NCBI GenBank assembly: GCA_023957575.1
Contig: JAMLGU010000001.1
Span: forward strand, 1-64,000
Direction: 5' to 3'
Length of the DNA: 64,000 nucleotides
Origin: Chitinophagaceae bacterium
GTDB lineage: Bacteria > Bacteroidota > Bacteroidia > Chitinophagales > Chitinophagaceae
Part shown: positions 33,053 to 50,843 of the stretch, in pieces
How positions within the stretch are numbered: the stretch's first letter is position 1
How the letters are laid out: each line of letters opens with the position of its first letter
The notes under the pieces: model-generated
Database searches by the model: none
Seen by the model: the letters and a program-made list of their open reading frames with translations, nothing else
Told to the model about the DNA's origin: nothing
Position numbers and translations under genes: made by a program

Positions 33053-33100
33053 GCTGTGTCTTTTATTAATGGCAAATGTAAAACACACAAATCAATTCTT

Positions 33101-33727
33101 GGCTAATTCTCTTTTTGATGTGCTAAGCAGATTTTGTTCAAATAATACTTATTCCGGTTTTGCTTCGTACGATAAAGGTTTCCCGATTTTTTAACAGTGG
33201 CTGCATGAGGTGCCTATTTTGGTTCGGTACCGCGTAAGCGGTATCTCGCTGAAAGCGAAAAGAAGCAAAATCAGCACCGGTGCAGCCACGCAGCCCGCCG
33301 GCTGCGGAGGCAAAAACTAGGAATGAAAGAATGTATGCTTGTTTTCAAACATTTTCTTGATAAAAAGTTTGACAAAAATCAAGGCTGTGATGCCCTCGCT
33401 AAAAATGAATTTCGTTACGCTAAAATGCCTGAACTCGCTTCGTGCCTGCGTTTGATAAAGTTAGCGTTTCTGCGCTCAAACAGCAGGCATTTTTTAACGC
33501 TTCACTACATTCATTTTTTTAACGCTCAGGCATCAAGGCCGTTTGGCTTCGCACGATGACGCTTCGCAATATCGCGGCTTGCCGATTATTGCCGCTGTGG
33601 AGGCGAAAAGGAGGAATTAAATGCTTATTGAATAAAAATTTACACTTTTCAAATAATGGTAACTGACCGGACGAGCAGAGGATGCTAACGGATTTTTTAT
33701 AATAGCAACACTAAAAAAGAATTAGCC
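33101..33727. mobile_element. MITE-like non-autonomous element, copy 1
   Basis: The 627-bp element has terminal inverted repeats of 24 bp (33101-33124, GGCTAATTCTCTTTTTG..., and 33704-33727) and an 8-bp target duplication CAATTCTT at 33093-33100 and 33728-33735. It encodes no transposase. A frame of 78 codons (33323-33559) is open in both copies, but most differences between copies there change the amino acid, so it is probably not a gene. Internally it has two long imperfect inverted repeats (see the second copy at 49488). It sits between tadA and the sugE-like gene. Confidence 0.88.
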
Positions 33728-33812
33728 CAATTCTTTGGAAAACCAAAAACTTATTCTGAAAGCTCTAATTTTGATCCGTATATTTTATAAATAATAACAG
33801 ATATTCGATATC

Positions 33813-48568: not shown

Positions 48569-48625
48569 ACGGTGAGTCTGTTCATCGCCAGAGCTTCGCA
48601 CCTTTGCTTTTCACAAAAATAAATA

Positions 48626-48875
48626 TAAAAATGAAAGGTAATGAAATTTCGGGAAAAGAACTCAGGGCAGATTCGGTATCCAAAAGCGTAGAAAACTACA
48701 TAAGAGAGAATCGAATATACAACCATTTGCAGGTGTCGCTGAACAGGTTCCTGAGCCTGCCGAAGGAACCGATCCCGATAAATAGAGGGAAAGCCCCAAT
48801 CGTTTAAAATCGGGGCTTTCTTAGTTTATTTTAAAGCTCGATTATTTGGGGCTTTTTCAATCCGCTTAATGTTGG
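48626..48875 (+). repeat. 250-bp duplicated block, copy 1
   Basis: This block recurs at 50591-50843 in the same orientation with about nine of ten bases identical. It starts with ATGAAAGGTAATGAAATTTC, encoding MKGNEISGKELRADSVSKSV and about a dozen further shared residues; after that the copies go out of phase. It includes a REP-like hairpin GGTTCCTGAGCCTGCCGAAG(GAACC) and a terminator-like stem AAAGCCCCAAT/ATCGGGGCTTT (48790-48819). I do not recognise the peptide; it may be a remnant gene start carried with a terminator. Confidence 0.8.
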
Positions 48876-49425: not shown

Positions 49426-49487
49426 TTTTATAAACTTTTTTCAAAGTTACCAAAATTTGGTAAGTATGTAAATTTTTCTGATTTTTT

Positions 49488-50113
49488 GGCTAATTCTTTT
49501 TTTGAGGTGCTAAGCAAATTTTGTTCAAACAATGCTTTTTTCGGTTTTGCTTCGTACGATAATGGTTTTCCGATTTTTTAACAGTGGCTGCATGAGGTGC
49601 CTATTTTGGTTCGGTACCGCGTAAGCGGTATCTCGCTGAAAGCGAGAAGAAGCAAAATCAGCACCGGTGCAGCCACGCAGCCCGCCGGCTGTGGAGGCAA
49701 AAAGTAGGAATGAAAGAATGTATGCTTGTTTTCAAACTTTTTCTTGATAAAAAGTTTGACAAAAATCAAGGCTGTGATGCCCTCGCTAAAAATGAATTTC
49801 GTTACGCTAAAATGCCTGAACTCGCTTCGCGCCTGCGTTTGATAAAGTTATCGTTTCTGCGCTCAAACAGCAGGCATTTTTTAACGCTTCACTACATTCA
49901 TTTTTTTAACGCTCAGGCATCAAGGCCGTTTGGCTTCGCACGATAACGCTGCGCATGATCGCGGCTTGCCAATTATTACCGCTGAGGTGGCGAAAAGTAG
50001 GAATGAAATGCTTATTGAATAAAAATTTACACTTTTCAAATAAGGTTAGCAAACCGGACGAGCAGAGGATGCTTATGGTTTTTTATAATAGCACCTCAAA
50101 AAAGGAATTAGCC
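49488..50113. mobile_element. MITE-like non-autonomous element, copy 2
   Basis: The 626-bp element is a close copy of 33101-33727 in the same orientation. Its 24-bp ends (49488-49511, GGCTAATTCTTTTTTTG..., and 50090-50113) are near-perfect inverted repeats, and GATTTTTT is duplicated at 49480-49487 and 50114-50121. Inside, GTGGCTGCATGAGGTGCC (about 49585) pairs with the segment ending GGTGCAGCCAC (about 49675), enclosing hairpins TACCGC-GTAA-GCGGTA and TCTCGCT-GAA-AGCGAGA. A second inverted repeat joins TGAATTTCGTTACGCTAAAA and the segment near 49878-49905. No transposase is encoded. Confidence 0.9.
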
Positions 50114-50155
50114 GATTTTTTAGCTAAATTTCCAAGTAGTGTATTGGTGGCTGTT

Positions 50156-50515: not shown

Positions 50516-50590
50516 ATCAATTTCGGTCTTGGCATATTTTACTTTTTTAATTTCAGAGTTTATCCTCTTTACTTTTCATCAGATATATAA

Positions 50591-50843
50591 TAAAAATGAA
50601 AGGTAATGAAATTTCGGGAAAAGAACTCAGGGCAGATTCGGTATCCAAAAGCGTAGAAAACTACATAAGAGAGAGTCGAATATACAACCCATTTGCAGGT
50701 GTCGCTGAACAGGTTCTTGAGCCTGCCGAAGGAACCTCTCCCGATATATTTAGGGCAAGCCCCGATCGTTTAAAATCGGGGCTTTCTTAGTTTATTTTAA
50801 AGCTCGATTATTGGGGGCTTTTTTTCAATCCGCTTAATGTTGG
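50591..50843 (+). repeat. 250-bp duplicated block, copy 2
   Basis: Second copy of 48626-48875. The reading frame here continues as MKGNEISGKELRADSVSKSV...NPFAGVAEQVLEPAEGTSPD to 50790, 64 residues, diverging from copy 1 after residue 31 because of a one-base length difference. The REP-like hairpin and the terminator (perfect in this copy) are retained. The two copies bracket the ParDE pair, the MITE and the truncated gene. Confidence 0.8.
50757..50784 (+). terminator. Rho-independent-type hairpin in the duplicated block
   Basis: AAGCCCCGAT (50757-50766) and ATCGGGGCTT (50775-50784) form a perfect ten-pair stem with loop CGTTTAAA, followed by TCTTAGTTTATTTT. The symmetry allows function in both directions. 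No clear gene ends here today. Confidence 0.7.

What the first reader, a model, noticed from the sequence alone, without database searches (positions are those of the whole stretch)
33101..33727. New MITE-like element with 24-bp inverted ends and 8-bp target duplications (copy 1)
Comparison of 33101-33727 with 49488-50113 shows two near-identical elements. Each is bounded by the same inverted ends and by its own distinct 8-bp duplication (CAATTCTT here, GATTTTTT at the other), which proves transposition and not segmental duplication. No transposase is encoded, so an unlinked one must act in trans; families making 8-bp duplications (for example IS1595, ISL3, IS66, IS256) are candidates. Here it sits directly upstream of both tadA and the sugE-like gene.
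Basis: seen in the sequence. Interest (0 to 1): 0.7.

Follow-up and report, generated by a model that had tools for sequence, protein, structure and literature searches.

The report
Transposase-less jumping element moved by ISL3
This 627-base stretch is one of about 18 copies of a small gene-free jumping element whose ends match a full-length transposon elsewhere in the same genome, and its core is a hairpin-forming repeat shared by many related bacteria.

Summary
33101-33727 is one of 14 near full-length and 4 shortened copies of a non-coding element in this 3.8-Mb genome. All copies examined lie between genes. Copies end at the same 25-bp inverted repeats, and 11 of 17 copies with two ends carry a target duplication matching at 7-8 of 8 positions (1 of 544 mismatched flank pairs does).

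Six copies (plus one at a contig end) of a 1451-bp IS have perfect 25-bp ends matching the element's, and four carry 8-bp duplications. The IS encodes an ISAon1-like, ISL3-type DDE transposase in two overlapping frames. The element is therefore an ISL3-type MITE, a known kind (a Microcystis case is published).

Two points are less ordinary. The ends are nearly invariant across Bacteroidota elements whose transposases share only 34-69% identity, and other short elements carry them. The interior is not a deleted IS: it is a mosaic of intergenic hairpin repeats, one of which (about 155 nt) is conserved with compensatory changes in 19 of 102 genera of the family and is unusually invariant within the MITE. 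What that module does is unknown. No empty site was found, because relatives are too diverged.

The parts
33101..33727 (+). MITE copy 1 (627 bp, no transposase)
33101..33125 (+). left 25-bp terminal inverted repeat GGCTAATTCTCTTTTTGATGTGCTA
33703..33727 (-). right 25-bp terminal inverted repeat (20/25 complementary to the left, partly decayed)
33093..33100 (.). left target duplication CAATTCTT
33728..33735 (.). right target duplication CAATTCTT
33197..33289 (+). first interior hairpin GTGGCTGCATGAGGTGCC...GCACCGGTGCAGCCAC; diverged pieces recur in other genomes of the genus and family
33346..33371 (+). small hairpin CAAACATTTTCTTGATAAAAAGTTTG at the 5' side of the module; a similar hairpin lies beside the module in other genomes
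33383..33540 (+). about 155-nt structured module (covariance model R1 match, 168.5 bits), family-wide intergenic repeat
49488..50113 (+). MITE copy 2 (626 bp), 62 bp from a ParD/ParE pair
49480..49487 (.). left target duplication GATTTTTT of copy 2
50114..50121 (.). right target duplication GATTTTTT of copy 2
49688..49715 (+). 28-nt direct repeat (first copy) bracketing the structured module in MITE copy 2
49981..50008 (+). 28-nt direct repeat (second copy, 89%) bracketing the module in MITE copy 2
49770..49927 (+). structured module in MITE copy 2 (R1, 165.2 bits)

Best explanation
The feature is a non-autonomous miniature element (MITE) of ISL3 type. It has no transposase of its own. Its two 25-bp ends, consensus GGCTAATTCNNTTTTTGAGGTGCTA, are the same as those of a 1451-bp ISAon1-like, ISL3-type insertion sequence present in six full copies in the same genome. 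The most likely mechanism is that the IS transposase, made from two overlapping frames, binds these ends in trans, moves the element, and inserts it into AT-rich intergenic DNA with an 8-bp duplication. Shown here: shared ends, copy number, edges, duplications, intergenic placement, the partner IS. Inferred: that this IS's transposase (or a close relative's) is the one that acts, that its orfA and orfB are joined by frameshifting or transcript slippage, and that the MITE ends descend from the IS's two ends. The interior is not IS sequence. It is a mosaic of intergenic hairpin repeats, of which one of about 155 nt is a family-wide, covarying structured repeat now carried as a passenger.
For: Eighteen copies share edges. 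Eleven of 17 two-ended copies have duplications matching at 7/8 or 8/8, against 1 of 544 mismatched controls. A scan of the whole genome with the end pattern found 45 sites, against 0 for the reversed control pattern; I assign them to MITE copies or to IS pairs 1451 bp apart. Four IS copies are identical and carry AAATACGT, CATTTTCT, TGTATAAA and CCAATTTT duplications. orfA matches NF049916 (E 3e-22, above cutoff). orfB matches Pfam DDE_Tnp_ISL3 (E 3e-50) and NF049917 ISAon1 (E 2e-57, below its cutoff). MITE copies L002 and L003 are 99.7% identical on different contigs, each with its own perfect duplication, so movement was recent. Other Bacteroidota genomes carry ISAon1-like elements and short elements with the same ends, some with 8/8 duplications. 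The interior shows no similarity to the IS interior; pieces of it recur in relatives.
Against: No transposition was observed, and no empty site could be shown because genus relatives are only about 75% identical and their neighbourhoods differ. Four MITE copies and two IS copies lack a recognisable duplication. MITE copies are on average about 5-6% diverged while IS copies are mostly identical, so most MITE copies predate the present IS burst and may have been moved by an earlier relative. At 627 bp it is longer than the usual MITE.
Confidence: 0.93

Rival explanations
1. The copies arose by segmental duplication or recombination between intergenic regions rather than by transposition.
For: Some copies lack duplications (L008, L015, L016) and three share an internal deletion, so recombination or slippage acted on some copies.
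Against: Copies stop at the same two ends, flanks are unrelated, and 11 of 17 have individual 8-bp duplications.
Confidence: 0.02
2. The element is mobilised by another 8-bp-duplication family (IS1595, IS66, IS256), not by an ISL3-type transposase.
For: Duplication length alone does not choose a family.
Against: A 1451-bp ISL3-type IS with matching 25-bp ends and 8-bp duplications is present in six copies. The same ends flank further ISAon1-like transposases in other genomes.
Confidence: 0.03
3. The interior is a functional structured RNA or DNA element under selection, and the MITE is its vehicle rather than the module being an idle passenger.
For: Positions 236-440 have 25 variable sites in 205, against 150 in 423 elsewhere (0 of 10,000 GC-controlled permutations). 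The module covaries (10 of 34 pairs with changes on both sides, 0 of 500 shuffles) and occurs in 19 of 102 family genera.
Against: Three copies lack the module and persist. No Rfam family matches. Palindromic DNA kept symmetric by repair or gene conversion could also give covariation and low diversity. No expression data.
Confidence: 0.25
4. The element is a long-dead relic that no longer moves.
For: Most copies are 5-6% diverged, and copy 1 has a decayed right end.
Against: L002 and L003 are 99.7% identical with intact ends and perfect separate duplications, and the partner IS has four identical copies.
Confidence: 0.1

Closest known systems
187-nt MITE of Microcystis aeruginosa PCC 7806 assigned to ISL3 (PMC11448079)
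   Same: No transposase; ends match an ISL3-family IS in the same genome; 8-nt direct repeats; mostly intergenic, often near toxin-antitoxin genes; stem-loop interior.
   Different: Ends there are 9 nt (GGCTCTTCG), length 187 nt, cyanobacterium. Here ends are 25 bp, length 627 bp, Bacteroidota, and the interior carries a family-wide structured repeat.
ISAon1-like insertion sequences (NCBIfam NF049916 / NF049917), ISL3-type DDE transposase PF01610
   Same: The partner IS matches both models and the Pfam ISL3 domain; its 25-bp ends are those of the MITE.
   Different: The MITE has none of the coding sequence. The partner's orfB is below the curated cutoff of NF049917, so it is ISAon1-like rather than a certified member.
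MITECca01 of Cardinium, derived from ISCca4, IS982 family (PMC9769881)
   Same: MITE with the ends of a resident IS; mostly intergenic.
   Different: Different IS family, about 240 bp, keeps short IS-derived sequence; here subterminal similarity to the IS is only 4-5 nt and the interior is foreign.
MITE with an internal minisatellite of Porphyromonas gingivalis (PMC4596501)
   Same: Bacteroidota MITE with a repeated interior (title and abstract only).
   Different: Interior there is a minisatellite; here it is hairpin repeats. End sequences were not compared.

Membership tests
MITE | No transposase gene of its own | tested here: met
   No transposase-like ORF in the element (longest ORFs under 90 aa); interior unrelated to IS coding sequence
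MITE | Terminal inverted repeats shared with an autonomous element in the same genome | tested here: met
   25-bp ends match those of the 1451-bp IS
MITE | Target-site duplication of the partner's length | tested here: met
   8 bp in both MITE and IS
MITE | Multiple dispersed, mostly intergenic copies | tested here: met
   18 copies; none of 17 examined interrupts an ORF of 80 aa or more
MITE | Short length (usually below about 500 bp; a convention, not strictly defining) | tested here: inconclusive
   627 bp; shortened copies about 387-538 bp
ISL3 family (partner IS) | ISL3-type DDE transposase domain | tested here: met
   PF01610 171.6 bits, gathering cutoff 23; NF033550 162.7 bits, below its cutoff of 180
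ISL3 family (partner IS) | 8-bp target duplications | tested here: met
   Four of six IS copies 8/8
ISL3 family (partner IS) | Transposase in one frame (usual in the family by own knowledge; not treated as defining) | tested here: not met
   Two overlapping frames, orfB +1 (or -2) relative to orfA, at a T5-7 A4-5 run in five elements; this is the arrangement NCBIfam splits into two ISAon1 models, hence ISL3-type rather than classical ISL3
ISAon1 group (partner IS) | Upstream protein model NF049916 | tested here: met
   79 bits, cutoff 55
ISAon1 group (partner IS) | Downstream transposase model NF049917 | tested here: inconclusive
   194.6 bits, cutoff 250, E 2e-57
REP/BIME repeats (considered for the interior module) | 20-40 bp palindromes | tested here: not met
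   Module is about 155 nt with eight helices
REP/BIME repeats (considered for the interior module) | Associated RAYT transposase | not tested
   No search for RAYT genes was made

The most novel reading that the evidence does not exclude
The interior module is an undescribed, structured, function-bearing repeat (RNA or cruciform DNA) that is conserved across at least 19 genera of one Bacteroidota family and is being spread in this species by capture inside an ISL3-type MITE, with selection keeping the module more constant than the rest of the element.
Probability: 0.2. Interest if true: 0.65.

Novelty: new member of a known kind. Interest (0 to 1): 0.38.

Why it matters
It joins a MITE to its probable transposase in the same genome and gives a 25-bp end signature that finds ISAon1-like elements and their MITEs across Bacteroidota; no paper naming ISAon1 was found in the library searched. 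It also exposes a widespread structured intergenic repeat that no Rfam family matches, whose function can now be tested by counting, expression and deletion.

Tried and rejected
Empty sites: searches with the flanks of copy 1 and of L009 in 16 genus relatives gave mostly single genes at about 65-83% identity with different neighbours, so no joint could be read. An Rfam search at a permissive threshold gave only a chance-level match. A sigma-70-type promoter scan was no better than shuffles, so a promoter role for the element at tadA or sugE is not claimed. An origin by simple internal deletion of the IS was rejected: beyond the 25-bp ends only 4-5 subterminal nucleotides agree (MITE right end with IS left end, MITE left end with IS right end), suggestive only. 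The idea that copies without the module (L016, L017, L018) are the ancestral state was judged less likely than deletion between the two ATCAAGG repeats, because similar repeats bracket the module in several genomes of other genera. Papers: none name ISAon1; one published ISL3 MITE was found.

Full report
What is there. Ends are 25 bp, 20/25 complementary in copy 1 and 24/25 in copy 2. A search of the window's own genome (3.80 Mb, 15 contigs) gives 14 near full-length copies, about 88-94% identical to copy 1, four copies with internal deletions or rearrangement, and one fragment cut by a contig end. Alignment shows that the copies begin and end at the same bases while flanks are unrelated.

Target duplications. 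With edges placed by alignment, the 8 bases on each side match 8/8 in eight of 17 two-ended copies (L001 CAATTCTT, L002 AAAATATG, L003 AAATTATT, L005 GATTTTTT, L009 TTTTTACT, L011 AGATTAGG, L014 CTTTTTCT, L018 GACAAACA), 7/8 in three and 6/8 in two. Among 544 mismatched pairings of the same flanks, one reached 7/8 and none 8/8. Sites with duplications (MITE and IS together) are 81% A+T. None of the 17 copies interrupts an ORF of 80 aa or more.

The partner. A pattern search for the end sequence found 45 sites in the genome and none for the reversed control pattern. Besides the MITE copies, perfect pairs lie 1451 bp apart at C1:331593-333043, C1:926900-928350, C9:228015-229465, C10:142808-144258, C10:165667-167117 and C10:312522-313972, with a seventh cut by a contig end. 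Four copies are identical and have 8/8 duplications. L062 differs by one base and L060 by many small indels; neither has a clear duplication. The IS has orfA, matching NCBIfam NF049916 (ISAon1 N-terminal region protein, above cutoff), and orfB in the +1 (or -2) frame, matching Pfam DDE_Tnp_ISL3 (E 3e-50) and NF049917 ISAon1 (E 2e-57, below cutoff). At the orfA/orfB junction, this IS and four relatives whose orfB share 34-69% identity with it all have a run of five to seven T followed by four or five A, in the same frame relation. That fits a programmed slip; it is inferred, not shown.

Spread of the ends. An exact search of named genomes for the end sequence found 66 stretches, all Bacteroidota by their titles: Prevotellaceae, Bacteroidales, Dysgonamonadaceae, Tannerella, Cytophagales, Chitinophagales, Sphingobacteriaceae. 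Among them are IS-length pairs and many short pairs (about 226-340 bp), two of which have 8/8 duplications (L116, L142); two more short elements match 7/8 (L150, L152). In the window's own family 14 of 396 genomes carry the ends with up to two mismatches, one of them 68 times. The end is thus far better conserved than the transposase. The loci were chosen by their ends, so this comparison shows that such diverged transposases occur with these ends, not that all ISAon1-like elements have them.

Age. MITE copies differ by about 5-6% on average, but L002 and L003 are 99.7% identical, with intact ends and separate perfect duplications. The IS copies are mostly identical. Both recent and older movement are therefore recorded.

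The interior. It has no similarity to the IS interior or to those of the relatives and folds far better than shuffles on either strand (z -7.4 and -7.8). The full-length interior occurs in no other genome of 396 searched in the family, but pieces do. The stretch at 242-440 of the element recurs as a stand-alone intergenic repeat in other genomes of the genus and in other genera at 72-91% identity. The window's genome has a second, more diverged family of the same design with about a dozen copies. An eight-sequence alignment gives a consensus of 34 pairs: 96.3% of cells are paired, and ten pairs have changes on both sides, against a mean of 4.2 in shuffles (0 of 500 reach ten). Slid controls pair 33-48%. 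A covariance model finds it in 23 of 149 family genomes and 19 of 102 genera, with at least 20 copies in one. In those genomes the unit also begins with a CTTGAT or CTTGAC hairpin and a TCAAGGC motif and mostly ends near AAGGCC or GAGGCC; no inverted ends or duplications were seen at its edges. No Rfam family matches.

Within the MITE, positions 236-440 have 25 variable sites of 205, against 150 of 423 elsewhere; none of 10,000 permutations within base classes gave a window so constant. Selection, gene conversion or structure-linked repair could each explain this. I leave it open. Copies L016, L017 and L018 lack the stretch between two ATCAAGG repeats (L018 also loses more), which I read as deletion across a palindrome.

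Context. Copy 1 lies between divergent genes, 48 bp from the tadA start and 85 bp from a SugE-like SMR gene. Copy 2 lies 62 bp upstream of a ParD/ParE pair. Promoter-like matches in the region do not exceed shuffles, so regulation is possible but unsupported.

Comparison. A 187-nt MITE of Microcystis with ISL3-type ends GGCTCTTCG and 8-nt duplications is published (PMC11448079), so an ISL3-type MITE is not new as a kind. No paper in the library mentions ISAon1. MITECca01 of Cardinium shows a MITE tied to IS982 (PMC9769881). The present element is a new member of a known kind, longer than usual, with an unusual interior.

Limits. The family's size and one genus of 7-10 Mb genomes suggest Chitinophagaceae, but this is an inference only. 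No empty site was shown. Transposition itself is inferred from anatomy.

Noticed in passing
window 33383-33540 and 49770-49927; also L068-L073, L202-L204, L209-L258: About 155-nt covarying hairpin repeat found in 19 of 102 genera of the family, unmatched in Rfam, at least 20 copies in one genome (G112). Conserved apical motif near AACTCG...GCTCAAACAG and a CTTGAT hairpin on its 5' side. Function unknown.
   Followed up: partly
own genome C8:334226-335728, C12:250208, C10:219531, C1:149388 and others (L076-L087): Second dispersed repeat family of about 183 bp, roughly a dozen copies, same overall design as the MITE module but diverged; some copies lie near each other in the same orientation.
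   Followed up: partly
L061 IS junction 400-420; L156, L164, L113, L109: ISAon1-like elements keep a T5-7 A4-5 run exactly at the orfA/orfB overlap, suggesting programmed frameshifting or transcript slippage for an ISL3-type transposase.
   Followed up: partly
window 48589-48857 and 50554-50823: Two direct repeats of about 270 bp (89-93%) bracket the ParD/ParE pair and MITE copy 2; partial copies occur at other places in the genome (C9, C1:179817, C8, C15).
   Followed up: partly
L060 (own genome C1:331593-333043): One IS copy is riddled with small indels against four identical copies; either a decayed copy or an assembly or consensus error.
   Followed up: no
L088-L153 (JAIROF01 contigs, Prevotellaceae MAG Cd354_bin66), G106: Genomes with dozens of copies of the same 25-bp ends, many in short pairs of about 226-460 bp, suggesting independent bursts of ISAon1-type MITEs.
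   Followed up: partly
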